Of a stretch of DNA of 64,000 bases, positions 29,639 through 58,343 are shown one piece after another. The position numbers were made by a program, and so were the translations under genes. Each line of letters starts with the position of its first letter. Position 1 is the stretch's first letter. Source of the stretch: Stenotrophomonas maltophilia. GTDB lineage: Bacteria; Pseudomonadota; Gammaproteobacteria; Xanthomonadales; Xanthomonadaceae. The stretch covers positions 4,543,001 to 4,607,000 of the forward strand of contig NZ_CP090423.1 of assembly GCF_023518235.1 (NCBI RefSeq). The letters are read 5' to 3'. The notes beneath the pieces were generated by a model. That model was not told where the DNA came from, searched no databases, and saw only the letters and a program-made list of their open reading frames with translations.

Positions 29639-30241
29639 GCCGGGCCGCGCCCGGCACCCGCAGAGGCCTTCAAGCAAGGGCAAAGGCCGAAGCAACAGCA
29701 ACAGCGGGCTATCCGTGGGATGGCGGGGCGGTGTGGGCTTGCAGGACACGCCGTAAACCCATCCATGGGGGCTCGATGGCGCCTTGCTCGTGTGCGCTGT
29801 CCTGCGCACACGGCAAGACCGGGGTTGGGGCGTCCTGCCCAACCCGCCCGAGGCATGCCTCGGGCCCATGGCGCCAACGGTCCTGCAAACCCACACCGCC
29901 CCACCTCCGACAGATTCCGTGTGCTGTGGGTAGGTGTCGACCTTGGTCGACACATCTGTCAGGTATCGACAATCAAAATGGGGTCAGATCCGTTTTCCTC
30001 CGGAAAACGGATCTGACCCCAAGGTCATTCCAACCGCTCGCGGAAAACCGTCGAAGGCGGGGTGGGTCCGGTGGCGGGAGTGTCCGCGGCATGGATGCCG
30101 CGGCCAAGCCCCCATGGATGGGTTTACGGCGTCTCCCGCCACCGGACCCACCCCGTCTACCCACAGGAAGCCAGCTTCTGCTGTTGCTTCGGCCGTTGCT
30201 TCGGCCGTTGCCTCTGCAGGTGCAGGGCTGCAAGCCCTGCC
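29639..30241. repeat. Composite palindromic element, locus A
   Basis: This fills most of the 685-base gap between the M2 peptidase and eptA. Palindrome A1 has arms at 29725-29746 and 29881-29902 (22 positions, one G-T wobble). A2 has arms at 30056-30079 and 30134-30157 (24 positions, one wobble). Between them lie a SMAG unit (29930-29953), a box CTGTCAGGTATCGA, and a 19-bp perfect dyad GGGGTCAGATCCGTTTTCC (29980-29998) with its complement (30002-30020). The right end is a 31-base terminal repeat (30211-30241) after GCTTCGGCCGTT repeats (30185-30211). The left terminus (29639-29668) is a diverged version. A1 carries about 78 extra bases inside its core. Confidence 0.8.
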
Positions 30242-30250
30242 GAACAACCC

Positions 30251-31900
30251 TCAACGCTCGCAGTTGGCGAACACGTCGCGGTCGCGTTCGTACAGCGCCG
30301 TCTTCACCTCCATCAGCCCCAGCACCGACGGGAACAGGTTGTCGTGGTCGGTATACGCCGCCGAGCGCTTGCGCACGCACTGCAGATCCAGCCCGCGACT
30401 GCTGGCGAAGCCCGGCGAGAACCACATCGTCATCGGCACCCGGGTCTGCTCGGCCGGGGCGATCGCATACGGCACACCGTGCAGGAACAGGCCCTTCTCG
30501 CCCAGCGACTCGCCGTGGTCGGACAGGTAGATCATCGCCGTGTCGTAATCCTGCATACCCTGCAGCGTGCCGATGGTCTTGGTCAGGAAGTGATCGGTAT
30601 ACAGCACCGCGTTGTCGTAGCTGTTGGTGATCTCTTCGCGCGAGCAGCGGCCGATGTCACGGGTGTCGCAGGTTGGCTTGAAGCGGGCGAAGGCAGCCGG
30701 ATAGCGCTCGAAATAGGCCGGGCCGTGGTTGCCCAGCTGGTGCAGCACCACCACGCGGTCACCGGGCCGGGCGCGCACCTGGGTGGCCAGATCCTGCAGC
30801 AGGATCTCGTCCATGCAACGACCGTCCGCGCACAGGCCCGGCGTGGTCGCATCGGACAGTGACTGGAAATCCAGGTTCTCGCACACGCCCTTGCAGCCGG
30901 ACTGGTTGTCACGCCACAGCGGCACGATGCCGGCGCGGTTCAGTACGTGCAGCAGCGACTGGTGCGCACGGATCTTCTTCTCGTCGTAGTCGTGGCGGCC
31001 CCACGGTGAGAACAGGCACGGCAGCGAGACCTCGGTGCTGGTGCCGCAGGAATGCATGTCCGGGAAATTGATCACGCTGGCCTGGGCCAGCTCCGGCGTG
31101 GTGTTGCGGCCGCCATTGAGGCCCCAGTTCTGCGCACGCACGGTCTCGCCCATCACGATCACCAGCAGGCGCGGCTTGCTGGCCGGCGCACGCGGGGTGG
31201 CCTTGGCATCGATGCCGATCGGGAGCTTCGGCGCGCGCTGCACCGGGTTGTCGCCACGCAGTGCGCGCGGCATGCCCAGCAGCACGTTGGCCGGTGTAGC
31301 CAGATAACGCACTTCGCGCTGATTGCGCATCAGCGCCGAGACGTCCTGGAACGAGATCAGCGCACCCCCCAGTGCGGTTACTGCGGCCACCACCAGGAAG
31401 CCGAGGCGCCACAGCAGACTACGGCCCCAGCTGCGGCGGCGCAGCTGCACCCGCCACAGCACCGCCATCGGCAGTACCGCCACAAGCAGCACCGGCCATA
31501 CCAGCGACACGGTCATCAGCTCGCGGCTTTCCTTGGGGTCGGTCGCCAGCACATTGCGCAGCATGTCCGCATCCAGATAGATGTGGTAGCGGCTCATGTA
31601 GTGCGCAGCGAATGCGGTCACCAGCAGCAACAGACTGATCACCACCTTGGCATTCCAGCGCCAGACCAGGATGCCGAGCAGCACGCCGTGCGCGCCCAGC
31701 AGCAGCAACAGCAGCGACAGCGCGTAGCGCAGGCTGCCCGGATGGCTGGCCATCGCGCTGTGCCAGAACAGACCGTTGCCGGCCACCGCAAAGAACAGGC
31801 TGGTCAGCGCGATCAGCGCTTCGGTGGACAACTGCGGCCGCCAGTGGCGGAGGTTGGCCAGCGCAGGAAAACGCGCGGGACGTTGGACCGATGCACTCAT
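30251..31900 (-). CDS. eptA: Phosphoethanolamine transferase, EptA family
   Basis: A 549-residue inner-membrane enzyme of the family that transfers phosphoethanolamine to lipid A. Five membrane helices (about 30-46, 56-80, 84-104, 130-150 and 165-185) precede a periplasmic sulfatase-like domain. E252 (VMGETVRAQNWG) and LSDHGESLGE are metal ligands, and T289 in CGTSTEVSLPC is the nucleophile. Paired cysteines stabilise the domain. The MCR colistin-resistance enzymes belong to the same family. The ATG at 31900 overlaps the PAP2 stop by ATGA, so translation is coupled. It is the last gene of a probable ArnT-like/PAP2/EptA unit. Confidence 0.93.
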   Translation of the reverse strand: MSASVQRPARFPALANLRHWRPQLSTEALIALTSLFFAVAGNGLFWHSAMASHPGSLRYALSLLLLLLGAHGVLLGILVWRWNAKVVISLLLLVTAFAAHYMSRYHIYLDADMLRNVLATDPKESRELMTVSLVWPVLLVAVLPMAVLWRVQLRRRSWGRSLLWRLGFLVVAAVTALGGALISFQDVSALMRNQREVRYLATPANVLLGMPRALRGDNPVQRAPKLPIGIDAKATPRAPASKPRLLVIVMGETVRAQNWGLNGGRNTTPELAQASVINFPDMHSCGTSTEVSLPCLFSPWGRHDYDEKKIRAHQSLLHVLNRAGIVPLWRDNQSGCKGVCENLDFQSLSDATTPGLCADGRCMDEILLQDLATQVRARPGDRVVVLHQLGNHGPAYFERYPAAFARFKPTCDTRDIGRCSREEITNSYDNAVLYTDHFLTKTIGTLQGMQDYDTAMIYLSDHGESLGEKGLFLHGVPYAIAPAEQTRVPMTMWFSPGFASSRGLDLQCVRKRSAAYTDHDNLFPSVLGLMEVKTALYERDRDVFANCER

Positions 31901-32664
31901 GCGTTTGCCTCCTGGCGGTGAGGACGGTCTGGCTGACGGTGGATCAGGACGCGTTTGACGATCAGGTACAGGCCCAGCGACAGCAGCCAACATATCAACA
32001 CGGTGGCAACGTCATGCGAAAGGAAATGGGCGCCCCGCAGCTGCTGGCTGATGCCGAACACCAGGCCGGTGCCCAGGCCGATACACAGCCCGACCCAGCG
32101 CCAGGACGGCCGCCACAGCAGCGCGAAGAAGTACAGGCAGAGCCAGGCGTAACCGGCACTGGCATGGCCGGCCGGGAAGCAGGCCTGTGCCTGCATGCCG
32201 GCAGGACGTGCGGTGAACAGACCGATGAAAGGCTGATGCCCGCCGTAGCGCAGCAGGTCCCAGGGGCATTCCATCGGCACCAGCGACTTCAGCAGGGAGA
32301 TCACGCCGGTGCCCAGGGCCATGGCAATCACGACATAAAGCAGCGCCCAGCGCAGCGTGGGATCGCGCCCCTTCCGCCAGTGATGGAAGCACAGCAGGAT
32401 CGCCACCAGTGCGGCGGCGGTGCTGAGCCACTTGCCGGCCTTGTGCACCACCGTGCGGGTGAGCCACGCATCCTGCAGCGCCCAGCGGCCCCCTTCGAGG
32501 CGGAACAGGTGATCGGCCACCCATTGGTCGCCGCCGAAACCCATCAGCAGGGTGAACACCGGCAGGGCGATCGCGACAGGCAGCCAGAGGTGAGTTACGG
32601 CAAATTTTGACGCCAGTGGCGATGTTGCAAGTGGCGCTACCGAATCAATGGGACGGACGGGCAT
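31897..32664 (-). CDS. PAP2-family lipid phosphatase
   Basis: A 255-residue membrane phosphatase with about six hydrophobic segments. The three PAP2 motifs are present in slightly modified form: K126 starting KSLVPMECPWD, PAGHASAG with catalytic H167, and R210 followed by GAHFLSHD with H217 and D218. Plausible substrates are lipid A phosphate or undecaprenyl pyrophosphate. Its coupling to eptA (four-base overlap) favours a role in lipid A or carrier-lipid turnover, an inference. The 111-base gap before it holds a 9-bp hairpin (32739-32766) without a T-run, so read-through from the ArnT-like gene is plausible. Confidence 0.87.
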   Translation of the reverse strand: MPVRPIDSVAPLATSPLASKFAVTHLWLPVAIALPVFTLLMGFGGDQWVADHLFRLEGGRWALQDAWLTRTVVHKAGKWLSTAAALVAILLCFHHWRKGRDPTLRWALLYVVIAMALGTGVISLLKSLVPMECPWDLLRYGGHQPFIGLFTARPAGMQAQACFPAGHASAGYAWLCLYFFALLWRPSWRWVGLCIGLGTGLVFGISQQLRGAHFLSHDVATVLICWLLSLGLYLIVKRVLIHRQPDRPHRQEANA

Positions 32665-32775
32665 GCTGGGCAGGGGCGGTTCGGGAATCCGCGCCCATGC
32701 TCGTCACCGGCATGTCGGAGAAGGGTCGGACACGCGTTCGCGCCGGGTTAAGGATTGCCCGGCGCGTGCCAACGT

Positions 32776-34479
32776 TCAGTCTTCTTCGGCGTTCGCACCG
32801 GCCCGTTCGGCGTGGCACTGCGCGTCCCAGGCCGTACCGGGAAGCAGTTGCCAACGATTCCTGTTGGCAACACCGATATCGATCACCTTGGTCGGATCCA
32901 CGCAGGGGCTCATTGCCTCGTCCAGCACCAGCAGCCAGCGCTTGTCAGGCGCCTCGGCCAGCCACGGGCCGGCGTCGTGCCATTGCTCGGCCCAGGGCCG
33001 CTTGAAACCGAACTCGCGTGCCGGGCGGTCGGCCTGCAGCAGGTTCTGCTCACGCCAGGCGACCAGCGCCAGCTCGGCGTCCGGGCCGATCCGCGCACCG
33101 ACCCGGCGCATCAACGCCGAGGCCGAGGCATAGGGGTCCAGCGCCGGGATCAGCACCAGGCCGTAGAGCATCCACAGCAGGCCGTGGGTCAGCAGCACCA
33201 GCGTCGCCGCACGACGCACCCGCAGCCAGACGATCAGGGTGGCCAGGGCGATGGCGAAGGTCAGCAGCCCATCGCCCAGCACCGGCAGCAGCGTGTCAGG
33301 CATCGCCCGCCGCTCCAGCTGCGCCAGCGCCCAGGGGTGCTCGGTCAACAGCATCACGCCCAGTGTGCCGGTGGCCAGCATCAGCATCACGCTGTAGCCG
33401 AACAGGTAGCGGCGTACGCACAGCCGGCGCAGCAGTCCGGGCAGCAGCGGCGCCACGGCCAACGCCATCGCCGGCAGCATCGGCAGCAGGTACACCTCGC
33501 GCTTGCCCGGGCTGGCGCTGAAGAACACCAGCACCAGCAGCGCCCAGCCCAGCAGCAGCCACTGGCGGCGGTCGCCACGGCGCAGGCGGCGCCACCAGGG
33601 CCTGAACAGCATCGGCAGCAGCAGGCTGCCCGGCAGCCACAGCGTGAGGACCACCTGCAGGTAGTACCAGACCGGTTGCCGGTGATGCCAGGCGTTGGCA
33701 TAACGGGTGCCGGTCTGCTTGAACAGCAGTTCATGCGCGTAGGCCTGCAGTTCGGCGCTGGGCGAGTGCAGCAGGGCCCAGCCCAGCGGCGCCAGCCACA
33801 CACCTACGCCGAGCAGGAAGGCCGGGATCAGCCACAACAGGGTGGCTGGATGCGGGCCCGCCACCGTGTAGCCGCGACGGCGCTGGTACAGCCACCAGCC
33901 GAACCAGGGCAGCACCATCAGCAGCGGCAGGAAGCCCACGCCCTTGGTGACCGTGCCGAGGCCGGCGGCGAAGCCGGCCAACCACAGGGCCGGCAGGTTG
34001 CGACGCTCGCACAGGTGTCGCAACAGTCCCCACAGGGCCACGGTGGTCATGCCCACCAGCACCATGTCGATCTGCGCACGCTTGGCCATCAGCCCGAACT
34101 GCAGGGTGCAGAACAGTGCGGCCAGGGCATAGACCGCGTGTCGTGGCGACCACAGCCGGCGCGCCAGGTCCGATACCAGCCACAGGCTGAGCAGGGCGCC
34201 CAGCAGCGAGGGCAGCAGGAACGACCATTGCCAGCTGCCCACCACCTCGTAGGCGGCGGCCTGCAGCCACATGAACACCGGCGGCTTCTCCGCATACAGC
34301 TCGATGCCCCGGTGCGGCAGCAGCCATTGCCCGCTTTCGACCATGGTGCGGGCGGCCAGCACGAAACGCGGCTCGTCCGGCGGCTGCGGTTGGCGCAGGC
34401 CGATACCGGCTGCCAACGCAGCGATGATCAGCAGCCACAACAGGGGCAGGCGCCAGCGGTGGGGCAGGGCTACGGGCAC
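32776..34479 (-). CDS. ArnT-like glycosyltransferase (GT83/PMT family)
   Basis: A 567-residue polytopic membrane protein. The first periplasmic loop has PPDEPRFVLAARTMVESG and, further on, LYAEKPPVFMWLQA. These match ArnT, which transfers aminoarabinose from undecaprenyl phosphate to lipid A; the D-E pair is the catalytic site. About 12 hydrophobic helices precede a C-terminal soluble domain. No aminoarabinose synthesis genes (arnA-D) are in the window, so the donor sugar is unknown. The frame is open to 34506, but GTG 34479 has GGAG six bases upstream and is chosen. It is divergent from a two-component system. Confidence 0.85.
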   Translation of the reverse strand: MPVALPHRWRLPLLWLLIIAALAAGIGLRQPQPPDEPRFVLAARTMVESGQWLLPHRGIELYAEKPPVFMWLQAAAYEVVGSWQWSFLLPSLLGALLSLWLVSDLARRLWSPRHAVYALAALFCTLQFGLMAKRAQIDMVLVGMTTVALWGLLRHLCERRNLPALWLAGFAAGLGTVTKGVGFLPLLMVLPWFGWWLYQRRRGYTVAGPHPATLLWLIPAFLLGVGVWLAPLGWALLHSPSAELQAYAHELLFKQTGTRYANAWHHRQPVWYYLQVVLTLWLPGSLLLPMLFRPWWRRLRRGDRRQWLLLGWALLVLVFFSASPGKREVYLLPMLPAMALAVAPLLPGLLRRLCVRRYLFGYSVMLMLATGTLGVMLLTEHPWALAQLERRAMPDTLLPVLGDGLLTFAIALATLIVWLRVRRAATLVLLTHGLLWMLYGLVLIPALDPYASASALMRRVGARIGPDAELALVAWREQNLLQADRPAREFGFKRPWAEQWHDAGPWLAEAPDKRWLLVLDEAMSPCVDPTKVIDIGVANRNRWQLLPGTAWDAQCHAERAGANAEED

Positions 34480-34610
34480 GGCAGGCTCCGGGAGCAAAAC
34501 GGCCACTCTGACGTGGCAGGGGTAGGAAAGGCGTCGGAACCGGCGCAGGGCGACCGCATTCCGACATGCGCAGCGCTACCATGGTACGAACTTCCGTGGA
34601 TGTTTCGTGC

Positions 34611-35324
34611 ATGCGTCTGTTGGTGATCGAGGACAACCGCCAGCTGGTGGCCAACCTGTTCGACTATTTCGAGTCGCGCGGGCATGTGCTGGACGTGGCC
34701 CCGGATGGCATCACCGGCCTGCACCTGGCCGGCAGTCATCCATACGATGCGGTGATCCTGGACTGGATGCTGCCGCGCATGGAGGGCCCGGAGGTGCTGC
34801 GCCGGCTGCGCGCCGAGCATGCCTCGGAGGTGCCGGTGATCATGCTCACCGCGCGCGACGAACTGCCGGACAAGATCGCCGGTTTCCGCGCCGGCGCCGA
34901 TGACTATCTGACCAAGCCGTTCGCCCTGCCGGAACTGGAAGTGCGGCTGGAGGCGCTGCTGTTGCGCGCGCAGGGCCGCAACCCGCGCAAGCGCCTGCAG
35001 GTGGGCGACCTGGTGCTGGACCTGGCAACCCTGGAAGCCCAGCGGGGCGGCCAGGTGCTGCACCTGTACCCGGCCTGCCGCAAGTTGCTGGAAGTGCTGA
35101 TGCGCGCCAGCCCCGGCGCGGTCACCCGCCAGCAGCTGGAATTCGCCCTGTGGGGCGACGAACCGCCGGACGGCGATCTGCTGCGTTCGCATGTCTACGA
35201 GCTGCGCCGCAGTGTCGACGGTCCGTTCGGCGAAAAGCTGATCCATACCCTGCCGCGGGTCGGCTATCGCCTGGCCGAGGCCACCCCCGGCGGTGCCGGC
35301 AAGGACGATGATGAAGGCGCGTAA
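34611..35324 (+). CDS. OmpR-family response regulator
   Basis: A 237-residue regulator. The receiver domain (1-115) has phospho-acceptor D51, T80 and K102. The winged-helix DNA-binding domain (about 130-228) ends in IHTLPRVGYRL. Its 3' end overlaps the sensor kinase gene by 14 bases. It starts 131 bases from the divergent ArnT-like gene, so it probably controls the envelope-modification unit, as PmrA or PhoP do elsewhere. No orthologue name can be fixed from sequence alone. The ATG at 34611 begins the receiver fold (MRLLVIEDN). Confidence 0.92.
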   Translation: MRLLVIEDNRQLVANLFDYFESRGHVLDVAPDGITGLHLAGSHPYDAVILDWMLPRMEGPEVLRRLRAEHASEVPVIMLTARDELPDKIAGFRAGADDYLTKPFALPELEVRLEALLLRAQGRNPRKRLQVGDLVLDLATLEAQRGGQVLHLYPACRKLLEVLMRASPGAVTRQQLEFALWGDEPPDGDLLRSHVYELRRSVDGPFGEKLIHTLPRVGYRLAEATPGGAGKDDDEGA

Positions 35325-36597
35325 GCCGGGGCCGCTGTATCGGCGCGTGGTGTGGTGGTTGCTGGGCTACCTGGCGCTGATTTCGCTGGCCGTGTTCAGT
35401 GTCGGCAACTATGTGCACGAGCACGCCGAACACGCCGCCTGGCGCGCGCTGCTCAATTCCGAGCTGGACAGCATCGTTGAGCACGTCGAACACGAGCCGC
35501 ACTACCGCTGGCAGGATTCGGACACGCTCAGCCTGTACCGCTTCGATGCAGTCAATCTGCCTGACAGCCTGCGCACGCTGCACCCGGGGCTGCATGACGG
35601 GGTGATGATCAAGGGACGGGAGACGGCGGTGATGGTGCGCGAGACCCGGTCCATGGGCCGCGTCGCGCTGGCGCTGGACATCTCCGACTTCCATGATCTG
35701 GAGCAGTTTGCCACGCGCTGGGTGATGCTGGCCGGGGTGATCATGATCTTCGTCACCGTGCTGATGGCGTCCTTCGGCATGGAACGCATGGTGCGCCCGT
35801 TGAGCCTGCTGGCACAGCGCATTGGGGCGCTGCGCCCCGGCGTGCAGGGGCAGCGCATCGAGGTCGATCCGCGTGGCAGTTCCGAGCTGCATACCATCGC
35901 CGATGCGCTGAACGACTATCTGGATCGCAACGAGCAGTTTGTCGAGCGCGAGCGGGTGTTCATCAGCACCGCCAGTCACGAACTGCGTACGCCGATCGCG
36001 GTGATGACCGGTGCGGCCGAGCTGGCACTGGAACAGCCGGGCCTGCCCGAGCGCGCGCGCCAGCAGGTGCAGCGGGTGCTGCGTACCGCGCAGAACGTGG
36101 AGCAGCTGATCGAGCTGCTGCTGGTGCTGGCACGTGATCCGGCGCGGCTGGCCGCACGCGCCGAGCGCATCGCACTGGACCAGCTGCTGCCGGAGATCGT
36201 CGACGACCATCGCCACCTGCTCGGCGACAAGGACCTGAGCATCGGCATCCACGCCGCGCCGGTGGATATCGTCGCACCGCTGGCGGTGGTGCAGGCGGCC
36301 ATCGGCAACCTGCTGCGCAATGCCATCGAGAACAGCGGGCGTGGCCATATCGAACTGCGGCTGAGCGCGTCGGCGGTGCTGACCCTGCAGGATCCTGGGC
36401 ATGGCATGAGCCCGGAGGAGATCGCCGCAATCCACGCGCGGATGGCCCGCGGCGAGCGCGCCGACCGTGGCGGCGGCATCGGCCTGGACCTGATCGCGCG
36501 GCTGTGCGAACACCTGGGCTGGACCCTGCAGCTGGATCCCTGCGAGCCGCGCGGCACGCGCGTTACCCTCGACTTCGGTGCTTCACGACCGGCCTGA
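35311..36597 (+). CDS. Sensor histidine kinase partner
   Basis: A 428-residue membrane kinase. TM1 is at about 12-32, the periplasmic sensor is about 100 residues long with many H, E and D residues, and TM2 is at about 137-156. HAMP follows, then HisKA with H223 in SHELRTPI, then an ATPase domain with N-box LLRNAIENS, DPGHGM and GGGIGLDL. It autophosphorylates and passes phosphate to the overlapping regulator. The histidine-rich sensor hints at a pH or metal signal, which is speculation. ATG 35311 rather than ATG 35308 is favoured by AAGGA spacing. A terminator is not obvious; a SMAG pair follows. Confidence 0.9.
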   Translation: MKARKPGPLYRRVVWWLLGYLALISLAVFSVGNYVHEHAEHAAWRALLNSELDSIVEHVEHEPHYRWQDSDTLSLYRFDAVNLPDSLRTLHPGLHDGVMIKGRETAVMVRETRSMGRVALALDISDFHDLEQFATRWVMLAGVIMIFVTVLMASFGMERMVRPLSLLAQRIGALRPGVQGQRIEVDPRGSSELHTIADALNDYLDRNEQFVERERVFISTASHELRTPIAVMTGAAELALEQPGLPERARQQVQRVLRTAQNVEQLIELLLVLARDPARLAARAERIALDQLLPEIVDDHRHLLGDKDLSIGIHAAPVDIVAPLAVVQAAIGNLLRNAIENSGRGHIELRLSASAVLTLQDPGHGMSPEEIAAIHARMARGERADRGGGIGLDLIARLCEHLGWTLQLDPCEPRGTRVTLDFGASRPA

Positions 36598-36628
36598 TCC
36601 GGCCGCCACCCCTGCCTGGAACGCTGCC

Positions 36629-36680
36629 CGTCGACCAAGGTCGACGCCTACCGGTAGATGGCCAGCTTGCTTGGCATGCC
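36629..36680. repeat. SMAG pair (one degenerate)
   Basis: 36629-36651 is an inverted-orientation unit (stem CGTCGACC/GGTCGACG, ending CCTAC). 36654-36680 starts with GTAG but its stem around GCCAGCTTGCTTGGC is imperfect. They separate the kinase gene from the convergent VOC gene. Confidence 0.65.
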
Positions 36681-36687
36681 GAACGCG

Positions 36688-37077
36688 TCACTGCCCGTTG
36701 GGTCGTGCCACATGCTGGTCGATCAGGATCACATTGCCATCCGGATCGGCCAGCTGCACATACCCGGGGCTGTGGCCGTCAGGGTCGGTGCGCACCGCCA
36801 GCTCGATGCCCCGGGCATCGAGTTCGGCCTGCAGCTCACGCACGTCCTGGAACTGGGGCAGTTCCTGCTTGTGCTGGTCCCAGCCCGGGTTGAAGGTCAG
36901 AAGGTTGCCTTCAAACATGCCCTGGAACAGGCCGATGACGATGCCGTTGTTGCGCATCACCAGCCAGTTCTGTGCCGGCTCGCCACCGGTCACCGAAAAC
37001 CCGAGGGCTTCGTAGAAGTCACGGGAGGCCTGGAGGTCCTTGACCGAGAGACTGACCGAGAAGGCACCAAGCTGCAT
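36688..37077 (-). CDS. Glyoxalase/bleomycin-resistance-type VOC protein
   Basis: A 129-residue protein with the two beta-alpha-beta-beta-beta modules of the VOC superfamily: [20 protein letters not shown] at the start and a second module ending in [18 protein letters not shown]. It resembles lactoylglutathione-lyase-related proteins of unknown substrate. The ATG at 37077 has TGGAG seven bases upstream. It is divergent from the DUF819 gene. An in-frame upstream extension crosses the divergent promoter region and is not accepted. Confidence 0.85.
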
Positions 37078-37148
37078 GGGACGGGCTCCAGGAAGGACAG
37101 CCGGCACTGCAGCATGACCCGGCGTGAAGACAATGTTAATCTCGGGAT

Positions 37149-37176
37149 GCGCCGCTTTAAGCGGCGCTTTTTTTTC
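37149..37176 (+). terminator. Hairpin with T8 run just upstream of the DUF819 gene
   Basis: The stem GCGCCGCT/AGCGGCGC with a three-base loop, followed by eight T. It ends 29 bases before the DUF819 start codon inside a divergent promoter region. It is therefore placed as a leader attenuator or as the end of a short transcript, not as the end of a known gene. Confidence 0.75.
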
Positions 37177-39773: not shown

Positions 39774-39777
39774 GTCA

Positions 39778-40324
39778 GCAGGGCTTGCAGCCCTGCACCT
39801 GCAGAGGCTGAAGCCGAAGCCGAAGCAAGATCAGAGCGGCATTCCGCGGGATGGCGGGGTGGGTCCGGTTGCGGGGGACGGCGCAAGTACGTCCATGTAG
39901 CCTCGGTCGCCGCATCCATGCGGCTCACGCCCCCGCAACCGGACCCACCCCGCCTTCGACAGGTTCACGCGGCTGTGGGTAACGGCGACTGCTGGTACGC
40001 GCGGCTTTGGGTAGGTGTCGACCTTGGTCGACACGATTTTTCTGTCAGATATCGATAAACAGAATGGGGTCAGATCCGTTTTCCTTCGGAAAATGGATCT
40101 GACCCCGCATGTGTGTCGCCGTCACCGGCAATCTGTCGAAGGTGGGGCGGTGTGGGCTTGCAGGACCGTTGGCGCCATGGATGGCGCCATCGAGCCCCCA
40201 TGGAGGGGTTTACGGCGTGTCCTGCAAGCCCACACCGCCCCGCCAAACCCACAGAAAGCCAGAGCAGACGCTCCCGCAGTTGCAGTTGCTCCGGCCTCTG
40301 CGGGCGCCGGGCTGCAAGCCCGGC
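39778..40324. repeat. Composite palindromic element, locus B
   Basis: This occupies the 565-base gap between two convergent genes. The left terminus (39778-39808) is identical, inverted, to the right terminus of locus A over 31 bases. GAAGCC repeats follow (39810-39826). Palindrome B1 has perfect 25-bp arms (39853-39877, 39930-39954) but a diverged core. The spacer holds a SMAG unit (40011-40034), the box CTGTCAGATATCGA, and the GGGGTCAGATCC dyad (40066-40106). Palindrome B2 has perfect 22-bp arms (40144-40165, 40220-40241). The right terminus is at 40294-40324. This is the most complete copy. Confidence 0.82.
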
Positions 40325-40338
40325 ACCCACACAGAACC

Positions 40339-46232: not shown

Positions 46233-46386
46233 GCGGGCGTTCTCGCTGGCAGGGATCAGGCGATCAGCATCGCATGCAGCTGTGACGGGGACATGCCCCG
46301 TATGGGTAACAGGTTGTTCCAGCCAACGGCGCAGCCCCTCGTGGCTGTTGGTTGGTTGGTCGCGTAAAGCGGAAAGCCGCGCTTGG

Positions 46387-46860
46387 CCGGGCGGGTGGAT
46401 TGCGCAGGACACGCCGTAAACCCATCCATGGGGGCTCGATGGCGCCATCCATGGCGCCAACGGTCCTGCGCAACCCACCCGCCCGGCCTCTGACGGTTTC
46501 CGTGTGCATCCAGCCACGGAGAAGAAAATCAAAATCAAAATCAAACGCCGGTCGCTTCGCTCGCATCCACGCATGGCGTGGATCAAGCGTGTCGACCAAG
46601 GTCGACACCTGCCAGTCATCGCCGTTCACCCACCGTCACCGGGAAGCTGTCAGGGGCGGGGCGGTGTCGGGTTGCGGGGTGTCCGCGGCATGGATGCGGC
46701 TGCCAAGCCCCCAAGGACGGGTTTACGGCGTCCCCGCAACCCGACACCGCCCCGCCCAACAAACAGAAAAGCCAGAGCCGGCTGTTGCTCCGGCTCTGGC
46801 TCTGGCTCTGGCTTTTGCTTCGGCAGTTGCCTCTGCGGGTGCCGGGCCGCAGGCCCGGCC
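46387..46860. repeat. Composite palindromic element, locus C
   Basis: This lies in the 635-base gap between the second pirin and the beta-oxidation gene. Palindrome C1 has arms at 46387-46409 and 46464-46486 (one mismatch in 23). C2 has perfect 25-bp arms (46655-46679, 46732-46756). The spacer carries ATCAAA repeats (46527-46546) and two SMAG-like dyads (46563-46583 and 46589-46610) but lacks the GGGGTCAGATCC dyad. GGCTCT repeats (about 46790-46815) precede the right terminus (46830-46860). No left terminus is found; 46233-46386 shows nothing else I can name. Confidence 0.78.
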
Positions 46861-50665: not shown

Positions 50666-50680
50666 GCCGGGCGCCTTCAC

Positions 50681-50739: not shown

Positions 50740-52272
50740 ATGACTCCCCGACTCCGCACGCAGGCGATCGGCCTGCTGGCCCTGACCCTTCCCCTGATGG
50801 CCTGCGCACAGGCCCCGGCGCCTGCCGCCCCGGCCCAGCCTGCGCCGGCCGCCGCGCCGAGGGCGCCGGCACAGCCGCTGGTCAGTGGCCTGCCCGATTT
50901 CACCAACCTTGTCGAACAGGTCGGGCCGGGCGTGGTCAACGTCGACACCACCATCGTCCGCAACAACCGCCAGGCCGCGCGCGGCCCGATGGGCGACGAT
51001 GACATGCCGGAGTTCTTCCGCCGCTTCTTCGGGCCGGACTTCCCGATGCCGGGGCAGGGCCCGGGCGGGCAGGATGGCGGCCCCAGCATCAAGGGCCGTG
51101 GCATGGGCTCGGGCTTCATCATTTCGCCTGATGGCTACGTGCTGACCAACTACCATGTGGTGGCCGACGCCAGCGATGTGAAGGTCAAGCTGGGCGACAG
51201 CCGCGAGTTCACCGCCAAGGTGGTGGGCAGTGACCAGCAGTACGACGTTGCCCTGTTGAAGATCGACGGCAAGAACCTGCCGACCGTGCGCGTGGGCGAT
51301 TCCAACACGCTCAAGCCGGGCCAGTGGGTTGTCGCGATCGGCTCGCCGTTCGGCCTCGATCACTCGGTCACCGCCGGCATCGTCAGTGCGCTGGGCCGCA
51401 GCACCGGGGGCGCCGACCAGCGCTACGTGCCGTTCATCCAGACCGACGTGGCGATCAACCAGGGCAACTCCGGTGGCCCGCTGCTGAACACCCGCGGTGA
51501 GGTGGTCGGCATCAATTCGCAGATCTTCTCCGCGTCCGGCGGCTACATGGGCATCAGCTTCGCGATCCCGATCGACCTGGCGATGAGCGCGGTCGAGCAG
51601 ATCAAGAAGAGTGGCAAGGTCACCCGTGGCCAGCTTGGCGCGGTGGTCGAACCGATCGATTCGCTGAAGGCGCAGGGCCTGGGTCTGCCGGACAGCCGTG
51701 GTGCGCTGGTCAACCAGATCGTGCCGGGCAGTGCGGCGGCCAAGGCCGGCGTGCAGGTGGGCGATGTCATCCGCTCGGTCAACGGCAACGCGGTCAACAG
51801 CTGGTCCGATCTGCCGCCGCTGATCGGTGCGATGGCGCCGGGCAGCAAGGTGAACCTGGTCGTCTACCGCGACGGCAAGCCGCGTGAACTGGGGGCGACC
51901 CTGACCGCGCTGAGCGAAGACGGACCGGGCAACGCCCGTGGTCCGGCCACGGCCAATGCCGATGCCGCGCCGCAGACCGGTGCGGTGGCCCTGCTGGGCC
52001 TGGACGTCAGCGACCTGACCGCGCCGCAGCGCAAGCAGTTCGGTCTGGACGGCAACGAAGGCGTGCGCATCACCGGGGTCAAGGGCCAGGCCGCGCGTGA
52101 CGCCGGCCTGTCTCCGGGCATGGTGATCCTGCAGGTCGGCCGCACCCCGGTTGGCAGCGTGGACGCCCTCAACCGTGCGCTGTCCAGCTTCAGGAAGGAC
52201 GATGTGGTGATGCTGCTGGTGCGTACCGGCAACGGCAACAGCGCCTTCGTGGCGGTGAAGGCCGGCCAGTAA
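50740..52272 (+). CDS. mucD: DegP/MucD-type periplasmic serine protease
   Basis: A 510-residue HtrA protease/chaperone. The signal peptide ends near LPLMACAQ, which could also be a lipoprotein signal (cysteine 22). An A/P-rich linker follows. The trypsin-like domain has the triad H139 (TNYHVV), D169 (YDVALL) and S244 (GNSGGP). Two PDZ domains cover about 300-390 and 405-510. It degrades misfolded envelope proteins and in Pseudomonas limits sigma-E activation. It lies 74 bases after rseA with only a small hairpin between them, so co-transcription is likely. The ATG at 50740 follows GGAGG. Confidence 0.95.
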   Translation: MTPRLRTQAIGLLALTLPLMACAQAPAPAAPAQPAPAAAPRAPAQPLVSGLPDFTNLVEQVGPGVVNVDTTIVRNNRQAARGPMGDDDMPEFFRRFFGPDFPMPGQGPGGQDGGPSIKGRGMGSGFIISPDGYVLTNYHVVADASDVKVKLGDSREFTAKVVGSDQQYDVALLKIDGKNLPTVRVGDSNTLKPGQWVVAIGSPFGLDHSVTAGIVSALGRSTGGADQRYVPFIQTDVAINQGNSGGPLLNTRGEVVGINSQIFSASGGYMGISFAIPIDLAMSAVEQIKKSGKVTRGQLGAVVEPIDSLKAQGLGLPDSRGALVNQIVPGSAAAKAGVQVGDVIRSVNGNAVNSWSDLPPLIGAMAPGSKVNLVVYRDGKPRELGATLTALSEDGPGNARGPATANADAAPQTGAVALLGLDVSDLTAPQRKQFGLDGNEGVRITGVKGQAARDAGLSPGMVILQVGRTPVGSVDALNRALSSFRKDDVVMLLVRTGNGNSAFVAVKAGQ

Positions 52273-52310
52273 GGCCGGCACGGGCCGCCGGGGCGGCTCC
52301 GTGGTGCCCC

Positions 52311-52336
52311 CGAAGCCCCGCCCTGGCGGGGCTTCG
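52311..52336 (+). terminator. Possible terminator hairpin after mucD
   Basis: CGAAGCCCCGC pairs with GCGGGGCTTCG around a short loop. No T-run follows, so it may be a weak terminator or an mRNA-stabilising stem. Confidence 0.5.
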
Positions 52337-52435
52337 GCCATTCCGGGCCGGTCCGATGAGGCCATTTTCGCGGCCGGGCGCCGGGCATGCGATAATCGAC
52401 CGTTACCCTGACGACGCCGCGCGCCGCCGCCACCT

Positions 52436-54244
52436 ATGTCTTCTGATTCGATGCGGAACATCCGCAACTTCTCCATCATCGCCCATGTCGACCACGGCAA
52501 GTCCACGCTGGCCGACCGCATCATCCAGCTTTGTGGTGGCCTGCAGGCCCGCGAGATGGAAGCGCAGGTGCTCGACTCCAACCCGATCGAGCGCGAGCGT
52601 GGCATCACGATCAAGGCGCAGTCGGTGTCACTGCCGTACCTGGCCAAGGACGGGCAGACCTACCATCTGAACTTCATCGACACCCCCGGCCATGTCGACT
52701 TCTCCTATGAGGTCAGCCGTTCGCTGGCCGCCTGTGAAGGCGCGCTGCTGGTGGTCGATGCGGCCCAGGGCGTGGAAGCGCAGTCGGTGGCCAACTGCTA
52801 CACCGCCGTCGAACAGGGCCTGGAAGTGGTGCCGGTGATCAACAAGATCGACCTGCCCACCGCCGACATCGAGCGCGCCAAGGCCGAGATCGAGGCCGTG
52901 ATCGGCATCGACGCCGCCGACGCGGTGCCGGTCAGTGCCAAGACCGGCCTGAACGTGCAGGACGTGCTGGAAGCGATCGTGCACCGCATTCCGCCGCCGC
53001 AGCCGCGCGATACCGACAAGCTGCAGGCGCTGATCATCGACTCCTGGTTCGACAACTACCTGGGCGTGGTCTCGCTGGTGCGCGTGATGCAGGGCGAGAT
53101 CAAGGCCGGCGACAAGCTGCAGGTGATGTCCACCGGCCGCAACCACCAGGTCGACAACGTCGGCGTGTTCACGCCGAAGCGGAAAGTGCTGCCGGCCCTG
53201 CGGGCCGGTGAAGTGGGCTGGGTGACGGCCAGCATCAAGGACGTGCACGGCGCCCCGGTCGGCGACACCCTGACCCTGGCCGGCGACCCGGCACCGAAGC
53301 CGCTGCCGGGCTTCCAGGAAATGCAGCCGCGCGTGTTCGCCGGCCTGTTCCCGGTCGATGCCGAAGACTACCCAGACCTGCGCGAAGCGCTGGACAAGCT
53401 GCGCCTGAACGATGCCGCGCTGCGTTTCGAGCCGGAAAGCTCCGAAGCCATGGGCTTCGGCTTCCGCTGCGGCTTCCTGGGCATGCTGCACATGGAAATC
53501 GTGCAGGAGCGCCTGGAGCGCGAATACAACCTGGACCTGATCAGCACCGCGCCGACGGTGGTGTACGAGGTCCTGAAGACCGACGGCTCGATCATCAACA
53601 TGGACAACCCGGCCAAGCTGCCGGCGGTGAACCAGGTCGAGGAGATCCGCGAGCCGATCATCCGTGCCAACGTGCTCACCCCCGAGGAGTACATCGGCAA
53701 CATCATCAAGCTGTGCGAAGAAAAGCGCGGCAGCCAGATCGGCATCAACTACCTGGGCAGCCAGGTGCAGATCAGCTACGAGCTGCCGATGGCCGAAGTG
53801 GTGCTGGACTTCTTCGACAAGCTGAAGTCGGTCAGCCGTGGCTATGCCTCGCTGGACTACCACTTCGTGCGCTTCGACGCCGGCCCGTTCGTGCGCGTGG
53901 ATGTGCTGATCAACGGCGACAAGGTCGACGCGCTGTCGCTGATCGTGCACCGCAGCCATGCCGACCGCCGCGGCCGCGAACTGTGCGAGAAGATGAAGGA
54001 CCTGATCCCGCGCCAGATGTTCGACGTGGCCATCCAGGCCGCCGTCGGCTCGCAGATCATCGCCCGCACCACGGTCAAGGCCATGCGCAAGAACGTGCTG
54101 GCCAAGTGCTATGGTGGCGACGTTTCGCGCAAGAAGAAGCTTCTGGAAAAGCAGAAGGAAGGCAAGAAGCGCATGAAGCAGGTCGGCCGCGTGGAGATTC
54201 CGCAGGAAGCGTTCCTGGCCGTGCTGCAGATGGACAACAAGTAA
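52436..54244 (+). CDS. lepA: Elongation factor 4 (LepA)
   Basis: A 602-residue translational GTPase, the normal size. The P-loop is AHVDHGKST (residues 16-24), followed by DTPGHVDF and NKIDLP. The C-terminal LepA-specific domain includes [18 protein letters not shown] and the basic [16 protein letters not shown]. It remodels stalled ribosomes or assists initiation complexes. The ATG at 52436 is used; ATG 52451 is an alternative start. lepB follows 54 bases later, and the order lepA-lepB-rnc-era-recO is conserved. Confidence 0.98.
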
Positions 54245-54298
54245 GCCCGCACCGGCCCTGCGCGGCCGGTCGTCTGGTGACGTTGCAAAGGACCCTGA

Positions 54299-55093
54299 AT
54301 GAAACTGTTTGAGATCCTCCTGGTCGTGCTGACCCTGGCCTCGGGCCTGATCCTGCTTGCCGACAAGCTGTACCTGGCCAAGCGCCGCGCCCAGCGCGCC
54401 GGCCTGCTCGATTCCGAGCCGGTGCTGGTGGACTACTCGCGCGCCTTCTTCCCGGTGCTTGCGATCGTGCTGATCGTGCGCAGCTTCATCGCCGAGCCGT
54501 ACAAGATCCCGTCCAGCTCGATGATGCCGAACCTGCTGATTGGCGATTTCATCCTGGTCAACAAGTTCTCCTACGGCCTGCGCCTGCCGATCAGCAACAC
54601 CAAGATCGTGCCGTTCGGCGAGCCCTCGCGGGGCGACGTGGTGGTGTTCCACTTCCCCGGCCACGGCGACAACGATCCGGCCAAGGGCGAGAACTTCATC
54701 AAGCGCGTCATCGGCGTGCCCGGTGATACCGTGGTCTTCGAGGGCGACGGTGTGGTCCTCAACGGCGAGCCGCTGAAGTACGACAACAAGGGCATCTACG
54801 CCGGCCACAAGGGCCAAGGCGAGGGCGCCAACCTGCTGGTCGAGCACCTGCCGGGCCGCACCCACACCGTGCTGGAGACCGATTACCCGCGCGGCCAGGG
54901 CCAGTGGACCGTGCCGGCCGGCAAGTACCTGGTGATGGGCGACAATCGCGACAACAGCGACGACGGCCGATTCTGGGGCCTGCTGCCGGAAGAGAACCTG
55001 CGCGGCAAGGCATTCCTGATCTGGCTGAACTGCCAGGGCTGGTTCTGCAAGGATGGCTTCGAGCCGTCGCGGATCGGCTCGAGCATCAACTGA
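54299..55093 (+). CDS. lepB: Signal peptidase I
   Basis: A 264-residue type I signal peptidase. Two N-terminal membrane segments (about 4-22 and 50-66) precede the periplasmic catalytic domain. Catalytic S74 is in PSSSMMPNL and the general base K135 is in FIKRVIGVPGD; the GDNRDNSDDGRFWG box follows. It removes signal peptides from exported proteins. A small hairpin without a T-run (about 54253-54270) separates it from lepA. The ATG at 54299 follows AAAGGA. Confidence 0.97.
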   Translation: MKLFEILLVVLTLASGLILLADKLYLAKRRAQRAGLLDSEPVLVDYSRAFFPVLAIVLIVRSFIAEPYKIPSSSMMPNLLIGDFILVNKFSYGLRLPISNTKIVPFGEPSRGDVVVFHFPGHGDNDPAKGENFIKRVIGVPGDTVVFEGDGVVLNGEPLKYDNKGIYAGHKGQGEGANLLVEHLPGRTHTVLETDYPRGQGQWTVPAGKYLVMGDNRDNSDDGRFWGLLPEENLRGKAFLIWLNCQGWFCKDGFEPSRIGSSIN

Positions 55094-55145
55094 GCGGGCG
55101 TCAACCGAGTATTTTCACATCCAACGCGTATCTGGGGAGAACGCA

Positions 55146-55529
55146 ATGAAGACGATGAACACGCAGCGTGGCATGACCCTGACCTCGTTCCTGATCGTCC
55201 TGATCGTGGTCGGCTTCTTCCTCTACATCGGCATGAAGCTGTTCCCGATGTACCAGGAGTACTACGCGGTGCGCTCGGCGATGAAGAGCCTGGCCAACGA
55301 GCCGGGCGTGGGCAGCATGGAGCCGGCGCGGATCCAGGAGCTGTTCTTCAAACGCCTGTACATCAACTACTCGGACAACGTGAAGCCGGCCAACGTGAAG
55401 TTTGATCGGCGCGACAATGGCTGGACCCTCAAGGTCAACTACGAAGTGCGCCGTCCGCTGGTCGGCAACCTTGATGTGGTTGGCAAATTCGATTCAACCC
55501 AGGACCTGACCCGAAGCGGTGCCGAATAA
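55146..55529 (+). CDS. DUF4845 membrane protein
   Basis: A 127-residue protein with one N-terminal membrane helix preceded by a [17 protein letters not shown] motif. This resembles the start of a type IV pilin (G-M-T-L), though the family is known only as DUF4845. The remainder is a small soluble domain outside the membrane. It sits between lepB and rnc in many gamma-proteobacteria. The ATG at 55146 follows GGGGAG. Its 3' end overlaps rnc by 11 bases. Confidence 0.88.
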
Positions 55530-56199
55530 ACCTTTCCAACGTGGCGACCTGATCGGTCATCCCTTCCGCGACCCGGCGCTGCTGAAGCAGGCGTTGACCC
55601 ATCGCAGTGCCGGTGCGCCGCACAACGAGCGGCTGGAATTCCTGGGCGACAGCATCGTCAACATGATGGTGGCCCAGGCCCTGTACCAGCGCTGGCCGAA
55701 GGCCGACGAAGGCGCGATGACCCGCGCCCGCGCCGAGCTGGTGCGTGAAGGCGCGCTGGCGGTGATCGCCCGCACCCTGGAACTGGGTGATCGGCTGATC
55801 CTGGGCGCGGGCGAGATGAAATCCGGCGGCCATCGCCGTGATTCGATCCTGGCCGATGCGGTGGAAGCGGTGGTGGCCGCGATCTATCTGGATGCCGGCT
55901 TCGAGACCTGCCGGGCAGTGGTGCTGCCCTGGTTCGGTGCCTCGATGGACGCGCTGCCGGCCACCGGCCGGCCGGAGAAGGACCCCAAGACCCGCCTGCA
56001 GGAATGGCTGCAGGCCCGACAGAAGGCGTTGCCGCAGTATGAACTGGTGTCAGAATCCGGTGACGACCACGCCAAGCACTTCCGGGTACGCTGCAACGTA
56101 GCCGACCCCGCCGCCAGCATCGAGGGCGAAGGCGCCTCGCGGCGGATTGCCGAACAACAGGCGGCTGCGGCCGTCCTTGAACAACTGGATTCCAAGTGA
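55519..56199 (+). CDS. rnc: Ribonuclease III
   Basis: A 226-residue double-strand-specific endoribonuclease that processes rRNA and structured mRNAs. The RNase III signature [10 protein letters not shown] has E40 and D44; later acidic residues lie in the [13 protein letters not shown] helix. A double-stranded RNA-binding domain (about 155-224) ends the protein. The start is GTG at 55519, inside the end of the DUF4845 gene. Its stop overlaps the era start (GTGA). Confidence 0.97.
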
Positions 56200-57092
56200 G
56201 CGAACAAACTCCCCATCACTGCGGCAGCGTGGCCGTCATCGGTCGCCCGAACGTGGGCAAGTCGACCCTGACCAATGCGCTGGTCGGCGCCAAGGTCAGC
56301 ATCGTTTCCAACCGCCCGCAGACCACGCGTCATCGCCTGCTGGGCATCGCCACCTACCCGGAAGGCCAGCTGGTGCTGGTCGACACCCCCGGCCTGCACA
56401 AGGTGCAGAAGCGGGCGATGAACCGGGTGATGAACCGCGCCGCGCGCGGCTCGCTGGAAGGCGTCGACGCCGGCCTGCTGGTGATTGAAGCCGGCCGCTG
56501 GGACGAAGAGGACAGCCTGGCCTTCAACGTGCTGCGCGACGCCGGCATCCCGGTGGTGCTGGTGGTCAACAAGATCGACCGCCTGAAGGAAAAGGGCGCG
56601 CTGCTGCCGTTCCTGCAGCAGGTGACCGAAGGCCGCGATTTCGCCGCCGTGCATCCGATCTCGGCGCAGAAGCGCAATGGTCTGGAGGCGCTGGTGCGCG
56701 ATGTGCTGAAGCTGCTGCCGGAAGCGCCGCCGATGTTCGGCGAAGACGAGATCACCGACCGCAGCCAGCGTTTCCTGGCCGGCGAGCTGGTGCGCGAGCA
56801 GCTGATGCGCCAGCTCGGCGAGGAACTGCCGTACGCCACCACCGTGGAGATCGAGCGCTTCACCGAGGACGGCAACCTGCTGCGCATCGGTGCGGTGATC
56901 TGGGTCGAACGCGAAGGCCAGAAGGCCATCGTGATCGGCAAGGGCGGCGCCCGCCTGAAGGAGATCGGCGCCAAGTCGCGCCTGCAGATGGAGCGTCTGT
57001 TCGGGGCCAAGGTGTTCCTGGAAACCTGGGTGCGCGTGCGTGAAGGCTGGTCCGACGACGAGGCCGCACTGAAGGCCTTCGGCTACGAGTAA
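56196..57092 (+). CDS. era: GTPase Era
   Basis: A 298-residue GTPase that binds 16S rRNA during 30S subunit assembly. The P-loop is GRPNVGKST (residues 16-24), with DTPGLH and NKIDRL as further G motifs. The C-terminal KH domain contains [17 protein letters not shown]. The start is GTG at 56196, overlapping the rnc stop, so the two are translationally coupled. recO follows 18 bases later. Confidence 0.98.
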
Positions 57093-57110
57093 GCCGGTGC
57101 AGTCGCTTCG

Positions 57111-57830
57111 ATGCTGATCGAGGACGACACCGGGTTCGTGCTGCACGCACGGGCCTACCGCGAGACCAGCCTGCTGGTGGAGGTATTGAGCGCGCAGCAT
57201 GGCCGCATCGGCCTGCTGGCGCGCGGTGTGTCCACCGCGAAAGGGCAGGTGCTGCGTGCTGCGCTGCAGCCGCTGCAATGGATCCGTTTCAGTGCGCAGC
57301 AGCGCGGCGAACTGGCGCAGCTGCGCGGTGCCGAGGCGCTGGATGCGGCGCCGCGGCTGGTCGGCCAGGCCATGCTGGCCGGCTTCTATCTGAGTGAACT
57401 GACCCTGCGCCTGGCACCGCGCCAGGACCCGCTGCCGGAGTTGTACCTGGCCTATGGCGAGGCGCGCGCGCGCCTGGCGGTGGGGGCCGGCCTGGCCTGG
57501 ACGCTGCGTCGCTTCGAGCGCGAACTGCTGTCCGCGCTGGGCCTGGGCTTCGAGCTGGACAGCGCCAGCGACGGCCAGCCGATCGATCCGGCGGCGCGCT
57601 ATGAACTGGACCCGCAGGAAGGCGCGCAACGGTTGCTGAGCGAGCGCGGCGGCGAACGCCGGGCGGCTGCAACCGGTTCGGCGCTGCTGGCGCTGGCCGC
57701 CGATGAAGAGCCCGGCGCGGCCGATCTGGCCAGCCTGCGCCTGCCGATGCGGCGGGTGCTGGCCCATCACCTTGGAGCCAAAGGCCTGAAGTCCTGGGAA
57801 CTGCTGGAGCAGCTGGCCCCCCGACGGTAA
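57111..57830 (+). CDS. recO: DNA repair protein RecO
   Basis: A 239-residue recombination mediator that helps RecA load on SSB-coated DNA with RecR. The N-terminal OB fold ([25 protein letters not shown]) and a helical C-terminal region are typical. No zinc-finger cysteines are visible, as in many gamma-proteobacterial RecO proteins. It ends the rnc-era-recO operon; pdxJ, often next, is missing here and composite element D follows instead. Confidence 0.95.
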
Positions 57831-57840
57831 GGGGTGTTCG

Positions 57841-58343
57841 GCAGGGCTTGCAGCCCTGCACCTGCCGAATCAACGTCAACGTCAACGTCAAAAGCAAAAG
57901 CTGGTTATCTGTGGGTAGGCGGGGTGGGTCCGGTTGCGGGAGACGCCGTAAACCCGTCCTTGGGGGCTTGGCCGCGGCATCCATGCCGCGGACACTCCCG
58001 CAACCGGACCCACCCCGCCTTCGACAGATTCTTGCGAGCTGTCGGACATGCCGACGGGGTCAGATCCGTTTTCCCTCGGAAAACGGATCCGACCCCAGTT
58101 TGAATTTCGATATCTGACAGAGATTCATCCACGCATGGCGTGGATCTACCAGACACCGGGAAATTGTCAGGGGCGGGGCGGTGTCGGCGTGCGGGGTGTC
58201 AGCCGCATGGATGCGGCTGCCAAGCCCCCAAGGACGGGTTTACGGCGTCCCCGCACGCCGACACCGCCTCGCCAAACCTCGGAATCCAGCTTTTGCTCTG
58301 GCTGTTGACCTGGCCTCTGCGGGTGCAGGGCTGCAAGCCCTGC
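57841..58343. repeat. Composite palindromic element, locus D
   Basis: This occupies the 524-base gap between the convergent recO and REC-Hpt genes. The left terminus begins at 57841 with GCAGGGCTTGCAGCCCTGCA, then GTCAAC repeats (57873-57890). Palindrome D1 has perfect 25-bp arms (57917-57941, 57996-58020). The spacer has the GGGGTCAGATCC dyad (58056-58096), the box TCGATATCTGACAG (inverted) and a SMAG unit (58127-58149). Palindrome D2 has arms at 58172-58196 and 58249-58273 (one wobble in 25). The right terminus is 58313-58343. The element thus has both termini and both palindromes. Confidence 0.82.

What the first reader, a model, noticed from the sequence alone, without database searches (positions are those of the whole stretch)
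29639..58343. A family of composite palindromic intergenic elements at four loci
Loci A (29639-30241), B (39778-40324), C (46387-46860) and D (57841-58343) share one architecture: terminus, short tandem repeat, palindrome 1, spacer with SMAG-type dyads, palindrome 2 in mirror orientation, short tandem repeat, inverted terminus. The shared blocks are seen directly. I know SMAG/REP repeats from this genus, but not this larger composite by name. Four copies in 64 kb implies many genome-wide.
Basis: partly seen in the sequence, partly recalled or inferred. Interest (0 to 1): 0.75.

Follow-up and report, generated by a model that had tools for sequence, protein, structure and literature searches.

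The report
Paired YPAL-type palindromes beside stop codons
Short DNA palindromes scattered through this Stenotrophomonas-type genome often come in mirror pairs just behind genes, belong to a repeat family known from Yersinia that turns up in other gammaproteobacteria too, and carry on one strand two tiny hairpins that look like landing sites for the global RNA regulator CsrA/RsmA.

Summary
The composite is real. The window's only near-perfect 22-nt-arm inverted repeats with 40-140-nt gaps are these eight palindromes (0 in 10 shuffles). Genome-wide, 72 strong loci (lower bound) comprise 46 '+-' pairs (three resting on a weak partner match), one '++', one '--', no '-+' and 24 singles. The cap is homologous to the Yersinia repeat YPAL/RU-2 (Rfam Ysr224), so the palindrome has a catalogued relative; I found no name for the composite. 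The cap core occurs in 29 of 369 gammaproteobacterial genomes. Elements favour convergent genes (29 of 72 against 19 of 188 pairs). New here: on the strand opposite to Ysr224's, both cap hairpins expose ANGGA loops 23 nt apart, the CsrA/RsmA motif, and stem mismatches indicate that this strand folds. Best reading: YPAL-type non-autonomous repeats acting as 3'-end RNA structures and likely CsrA/RsmA sites. Binding is untested, CsrA presence does not track the cap (26 of 29 against 287 of 340), and a single-strand transposition signal remains a live rival.

The parts
29639..30241 (.). composite A, between two minus-strand genes; right terminus lies 10 nt from the stop codon end at 30251
29722..29905 (+). 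long palindrome A1 (TCC strand = +), cap enlarged by an insert
29785..29866 (.). 82-nt three-hairpin insert in cap hairpin 2 of A1; also in cap hairpin 2 of other palindromes in every context printed; two of its hairpins show AGGA loops on the GGA strand
29930..29953 (+). GTAG-headed REP-like dyad (5 differences from published S_sp2)
29980..30020 (.). GGGGTCAGATCC palindrome
30055..30158 (-). long palindrome A2
30222..30241 (-). terminal hairpin
39777..40325 (.). composite B, between convergent genes
39850..39957 (+). long palindrome B1
40011..40034 (+). GTAG-headed REP-like dyad
40066..40106 (.). GGGGTCAGATCC palindrome
40141..40244 (-). long palindrome B2
46319..46860 (.). composite C (starts left of the reported 46387 if the type-2 outer arm is counted)
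46385..46488 (+). long palindrome C1 with type-2 flanks
46565..46612 (-). two dyads, S_sp1-like and the GTAG-dyad variant
46654..46757 (-). long palindrome C2
57840..58344 (.). composite D, filling the gap between two convergent stop codons (57830 and 58355)
57840..57859 (+). terminal hairpin, left
57917..58020 (+). long palindrome D1
57943..57994 (+). 52-nt cap of D1, homologous to YPAL/Ysr224; GGA hairpins on the minus strand
58056..58096 (.). GGGGTCAGATCC palindrome
58127..58149 (-). REP, S_sp1 (exact match to the published core)
   Evidence: consensus from PMC2817692 passage
58172..58273 (-). long palindrome D2
58325..58344 (-). terminal hairpin, right

Best explanation
Each composite is a dispersed, non-autonomous element made of two YPAL-family palindromes in tail-to-tail orientation plus REP-like dyads, sitting mostly just behind stop codons. 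Shown: the anatomy, the family link, the genome-wide order, the stop-codon position, and a mismatch pattern which says that the folding strand is the one on which the cap hairpins read C-ANGGA-N-G. Inferred: the palindromes are transcribed with neighbouring genes, the long stem guards RNA 3' ends, and the twin GGA hairpins, 23 nt apart, bind a CsrA/RsmA dimer, so the repeats form a scattered set of CsrA/RsmA sites that tie 3' ends to, or titrate, that regulator. The mirror order would give a read-through transcript from either side one GGA-sense palindrome.
For: Cap homology to YPAL/RU-2: 47 of 52 aligned positions identical to the best LP cap (two gaps); mean score of the 111 caps 26.8, maximum of 2000 shuffles 10. 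Rfam RF02770: 30 bits, E 1.7e-5 on 136 nt, below its gathering score of 70. Order: 46 '+-', 0 '-+'. Convergent enrichment 29 of 72 against 19 of 188, odds ratio 6.0; stop-to-LP distance median 78 nt, n=69. Hairpin 1 has ANGGA in 105 of 111 LPs, hairpin 2 ATGGA in 109 of 111. With the hexaloop left free in the pattern (closing C and G fixed), 122 of 127 listed places in 30 genomes outside the genus are ANGGA, the second and sixth loop positions varying. SELEX consensus RUACARGGAUGU, mostly hexaloop hairpins (PMC7652899 passage); a common foreign cap reads UACAGGGAUGU. Strand test, A.C against G.T on the TCC strand: 47:13 own, 96:19 further loci (60:11 without 40 loci whose titles I did not see), 41:7 other genera, 74:8 Pseudomonadaceae; in the own genome it holds on both strands and both halves. 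MFE folds of the GGA strand show two NGGA loops in 54 of 101, 107 of 182 and 19 of 36 LPs; on the TCC strand 0, 1 and 0 LPs show any. Insert A adds two AGGA hairpins on the same strand.
Against: No binding or transcript data. In the pairs, the palindrome nearest a facing stop codon is TCC-sense for that gene (singles occur both ways), and Rfam's Ysr224 is on the TCC strand. CsrA genes are not enriched in cap-bearing genomes: 26 of 29 against 287 of 340; G241 (98% complete), G387 and G054 have caps but no CsrA hit. MFE folds show both loops in only about half of the LPs. Insert G, the second cap insert, adds no NGGA apical loop. Most SELEX hairpins had four or fewer contiguous pairs, whereas hairpin 2 is longer. 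No target-site duplication was recognised. In Pseudomonadaceae the listing also shows two '-+' neighbours and several tandem ones.
Confidence: 0.45

Rival explanations
1. The cap is a single-strand transposition signal: an HUH/Y1-type (RAYT-like) or other transposase recognises the folded GGA strand; the conserved loops are its contacts and the elements are otherwise selfish.
For: High copy number and patchy distribution; mirror doublets as in RAYT-mobilised REPs (PMC2817692 passages); G.T pairs are also tolerated in folded ssDNA (recalled), so the strand test fits; YPAL is reported to make target duplications (PMC2229807 passage). In G294, 5 of 7 fetched IS4-type transposase loci have a cap within about 1.5 kb, which looks like more than its 239 cores in 5.1 Mb predict (not tested further).
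Against: No transposase is flanked by caps in what was seen: none of the 4 Y1_Tnp loci of the own genome has a cap within about 1.5 kb, and of 30 IS4-type loci fetched from 16 searched genomes 24 have none. The pattern of fixed and free loop positions is the CsrA pattern, which this does not predict. Clean recent insertions were not seen.
Confidence: 0.3
2. Generic bidirectional 3'-end elements: strong hairpins that stop exonucleases or RNA polymerase for convergent genes, with no specific protein.
For: Stop-codon position and convergent enrichment; near-symmetric stems with folding energies of about -80 kcal/mol; YPAL said to possibly influence stability of upstream transcripts (PMC2229807 passage).
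Against: A symmetric hairpin needs neither a fixed 52-nt cap with invariant A-GGA loops nor a fixed mirror orientation, nor does it predict the strand asymmetry.
Confidence: 0.17
3. Relics homogenised by gene conversion and palindrome-templated repair, with no present function.
For: Paired stem changes between orthologous copies at locus D, with a one-sided (mismatched) state in L142; cap variants with the same inserts sit on different stems; palindromes are lost in some relatives.
Against: Cap loops are conserved across families; a strand-symmetric process gives no A.C over G.T excess.
Confidence: 0.08

Closest known systems
YPAL / RU-2 (Yersinia palindromic sequences; Rfam RF02770 Ysr224)
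   Same: Same 52-54-nt cap under a long stem, intergenic; position near stop codons (the last recalled for YPAL from De Gregorio et al. 2006, not held).
   Different: YPAL is a single ~168-bp unit with 3-26-bp target duplications, reported from Yersinia and Erwinia carotovora (passage); here stems differ, units are paired in mirror image with terminal hairpins and REP-like dyads, and no duplication was recognised.
SMAG and other GTAG REPs of Stenotrophomonas, BIMEs, RAYT-associated REPs
   Same: Intergenic palindromes, doublets in opposite orientation; REP-like dyads lie in the spacers.
   Different: REPs are about 24 nt with a GTAG-type head; the LPs are ~104 nt, with a different cap and no GTAG head.
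CsrB/RsmZ-type CsrA-binding RNAs and CsrA leader sites
   Same: Hairpins with GGA in the loop, two at a fixed short distance.
   Different: Those are dedicated sRNAs or 5' leaders; these are dispersed repeats at 3' ends, and transcription of the GGA strand is unproven.

Membership tests
YPAL/RU-2 | conserved cap sequence | tested here: met
   47 of 52 aligned positions identical to the best LP cap, shuffle control; Ysr224 alignment
YPAL/RU-2 | long stem with two cap hairpins | tested here: met
YPAL/RU-2 | unit of about 167-168 bp | tested here: not met
   LP is about 104 nt; only type-2 flanks extend the palindrome
YPAL/RU-2 | target-site duplications of 3-26 bp | tested here: inconclusive
   none recognised by eye at locus D; no close, clean empty site
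YPAL/RU-2 | inserted just downstream of stop codons | tested here: met
   median 78 nt from stop to LP for 69 LPs whose outer side faces a gene's 3' end, one more at 428 nt; 45 LPs face a 5' end instead
SMAG/GTAG REP | GTAG head followed by a 20-40 bp palindrome | tested here: not met
   LPs lack it; dyads in the spacers have it
MITE | terminal inverted repeats | tested here: met
   terminal hairpins inverted at B and D; A and C differ at the left end, and type 2 modules differ
MITE | occupied/empty sites with clean junctions | tested here: inconclusive
   18 of 18 distant orthologous D sites have no cap, near relatives show deletions
CsrA/RsmA binding site | A(N)GGA in the apical loop of a short hairpin closed by C-G | tested here: met
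   in about half of MFE folds both loops form
CsrA/RsmA binding site | measured binding in vitro or in vivo | not testable with these tools
   P. putida Rsm pull-downs name a long palindromic region (passages), but the cap pattern was found in none of 103 genomes of the largest Pseudomonadaceae genus sampled, so this is not evidence for the cap

The most novel reading that the evidence does not exclude
YPAL-type palindromes are a gammaproteobacteria-wide family of dispersed CsrA/RsmA-binding elements: mobile twin-hairpin landing sites that spread a global post-transcriptional regulator's targets, or a genomic decoy for it, to the 3' ends of dozens to hundreds of genes.
Probability: 0.35. Interest if true: 0.88.

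Novelty: new variant of a known kind. Interest (0 to 1): 0.62.

Why it matters
If right, a repeat family described in 2006-2007 from one genus is far wider and has an identifiable protein partner, and repeats would be distributing a global regulator's binding sites at 3' ends. Even without CsrA, the strand test gives a direct, testable statement of which strand of a palindromic repeat is the working one.

Tried and rejected
Autonomous copy: the one locus with a gene between two LP matches (L080) is a lone LP in the edd-eda gap plus a weak second match, not a transposase. IS link: of 30 IS4-type (PF01609) loci fetched, 6 have a cap-like match within the stretch, 5 of them in cap-rich G294; left open, not proof. 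Y1_Tnp: 4 loci, no cap nearby. CsrA co-occurrence: no enrichment. miRNA matches in Rfam: taken as chance matches to any long hairpin. Replication-strand bias as cause of the A.C excess: not supported. Plasmid collection: no cap match at E 0.01 with one 53-nt query.

Limits: the R1 search scored only 150 candidates, or 92 per genome, so copy numbers are lower bounds. Gene calls are from my own codon model. The presence/absence table uses a detector that misses divergent caps (for example own A1), so I rely on the printed sequences. Rows left out: 16 R1 matches that are the same palindromes on the other strand; LPs with loops other than 52 nt or arms under 20 bp (110 of 120 used for the mismatch count); caps with fewer than 15 of 22 paired positions. 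The pattern fixes TCC in hairpin 1, so for loop conservation only its hairpin 2 and searches count. Mismatches that are neither A.C nor G.T also occur: 23, 91, 42 and 63 in the four sets.
Full report
Observation. In the 64-kb window (G000:C1:4543001-4607000; genus inferred from named Stenotrophomonas hits) the only inverted repeats with 22-nt arms, at most one mismatch and a 40-140-nt gap are the eight palindromes of the finding; 10 dinucleotide shuffles gave none. B and D have the full stated order. A1 carries an insert. C begins with a different module. RNAalifold on seven of the eight (A1 left out) gives 43 pairs, 23 of them with changes on both sides.

Genome-wide anatomy. A covariance model from those seven (R1) gives 139 matches in the own genome: 117 above 70 bits, six of 33-36 bits, and 16 that are the same palindromes read on the other strand, which I dropped. 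Linked at 1 kb the 123 make 75 loci: 46 '+-', 14 '-', 13 '+', 1 '++', 1 '--', no '-+'. Three loci rest on weak matches alone, leaving 72; three of the 46 pairs have one weak member, among them A and L080, which is not a composite. The loop is 52 nt in 111 of 120 re-measured palindromes. Two module types exist: a pattern count gives 86 of 117 with the GGCAGGGC-type terminal hairpin, 17 with the longer type-2 arms, 14 unassigned (sequences, output cut).

Where they sit. In none of the 72 loci does a gene call overlap a palindrome by more than 40 nt. 29 of 72 lie between convergent genes against 19 of 188 other gene pairs (odds ratio 6.0, p 1.3e-7). For palindromes whose outer side faces a gene's 3' end, the stop codon is 34-129 nt away (median 78, n=69; one further case at 428 nt); those facing a 5' end lie 58-548 nt from it. 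Palindromes facing a gene with their inner side were not in this count. At locus D, of 10 readable loci with neighbour proteins at least 93% identical, own included, 8 keep both palindromes (512-554 nt between the genes, 1048 in L151) and two, L141 and L148, have lost them but keep both termini. In 18 of 18 loci at 56-77% identity there is no cap, and the two stop codons can nearly touch (L153, L154). So old insertion plus later deletion is supported; recent transposition is not.

What family. Rfam lists Ysr224 (RF02770) below its gathering score on both D palindromes in matching orientation (30 and 23.5 bits). Its consensus contains the cap. The RU-2/YPAL sequence in Table 1b of PMC2759123 (passage) has the same cap, 47 of 52 aligned positions identical to that at L132. 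PMC2229807 (passages) gives YPAL as a ~168-bp element of Yersinia and Erwinia carotovora with 3-26-bp duplications; PMC2847712 (passage) counts 2-144 copies per Yersinia species and 3 in E. coli. A core pattern occurs in 29 of 369 gammaproteobacterial genomes, its reversed control in none, and a second pattern with a free loop in 32 of 369. Many stems there are unrelated in sequence yet complementary; some, notably in G294, pair poorly by my simple test. Within the genus, 20 of 25 genomes (own included) have R1 matches, two of them one match only. In Pseudomonadaceae 34 of 298 genomes have the core, all in genera g287, g289 and g292. There the capped listing shows 14 '+-' neighbours 125-259 bp apart, two '-+' and several tandem ones (sequences).

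Which strand works. In a palindrome the stem is the same on both strands, so under strand-symmetric mutation A.C and G.T mismatches should be equal. On the TCC strand A.C wins in four sets: 47:13 (101 LPs, own), 96:19 (182 LPs of other, mainly Stenotrophomonas, loci; 40 of those loci had titles not shown to me, without them 60:11), 41:7 (36 LPs, other genera) and 74:8 (59 LPs, Pseudomonadaceae). The sets share ancestry in part. In the own genome the excess holds on both strands, in both halves of the chromosome, and for single and paired LPs; per palindrome 39 against 8 with 63 ties. A.C on one strand is G.U on the other, so the GGA strand is read as the one that folds. Mirror pairing makes replication or transcription bias an unlikely cause.

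What it shows. On that strand both cap hairpins present C-ANGGA-N-G. In the covariance-model set hairpin 1 has ANGGA in 105 of 111 and hairpin 2 ATGGA in 109 of 111. With the loop left free (closing C and G fixed by the pattern), 122 of 127 listed places outside the genus are ANGGA; loop positions two and six vary, the positions that CsrA is not thought to read (the last point recalled). The CsrA SELEX consensus is RUACARGGAUGU, with ACA and GGA invariant and mostly six-nucleotide loops (PMC7652899 passage). The motif starts lie 23 nt apart in all 161 folds with both loops in the two Stenotrophomonas-type sets and in 16 of 19 others (24 in three). An 82-nt insert, seen only in cap hairpin 2 in the contexts printed, brings two more AGGA hairpins on the same strand; a second insert in hairpin 1 brings none.

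Against. In pairs, the palindrome nearest a facing stop codon is TCC-sense to that gene; Ysr224's strand is TCC; CsrA presence does not track the cap (26 of 29 against 287 of 340); three cap genomes lack a CsrA hit, one of them 98% complete; both loops show in the MFE of only about half of the palindromes. A P. putida pull-down names a long palindromic region (PMC7937890 passages), but 0 of 103 genomes of the Pseudomonas-like genus g297 have the cap pattern, so I do not count it.

Print. Searches of the held library listed no paper whose title or abstract shows the composite, YPAL caps outside enterobacteria, or a YPAL-CsrA link; most subscription papers are not held, and the original YPAL paper was not. 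Papers were seen as listings and passages only; none was read whole.

Noticed in passing
window 29785-29866; L073, L105, L316, G011, G042 and others: Two small structured repeats (about 82 and 90 nt) sit inside LP caps, one in hairpin 2, one in hairpin 1, in every context printed and on many different stems; some LPs carry both.
   Followed up: partly
L151 (G011, locus D): The REP-bearing middle of the composite is tandemly amplified about three times.
   Followed up: no
window 27525-27601, G005 orthologue: SMAG/terminator unit amplified to 806 nt in G005 against 75 nt here.
   Followed up: no
window 52272-52451, G009 orthologue: 462 nt in G009 against 177-184 nt elsewhere, without a cap.
   Followed up: no
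L080 (G000:C1:1644309): A lone LP with a different stem lies between edd-like and eda-like coding regions (gene names by eye).
   Followed up: no
G294: 5.1-Mb gammaproteobacterial genome with 239 cap cores, the richest of 369; many caps there have altered second hairpins, and 5 of 7 IS4-type loci have a cap within about 1.5 kb.
   Followed up: partly
window 24396-24498: Glycine riboswitch on the minus strand.
   Followed up: no
PMC7937890: Rsm-bound RNAs of P. putida include ISPpu8 flanks and a long palindromic region downstream of PP_3547 (passages).
   Followed up: partly
outer flanks of type-1 modules: Hexamer-like tandem repeats (AACGTC, AACAGC, AACGGC and so on) vary between copies and lie between terminal hairpin and LP; no explanation.
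   Followed up: no
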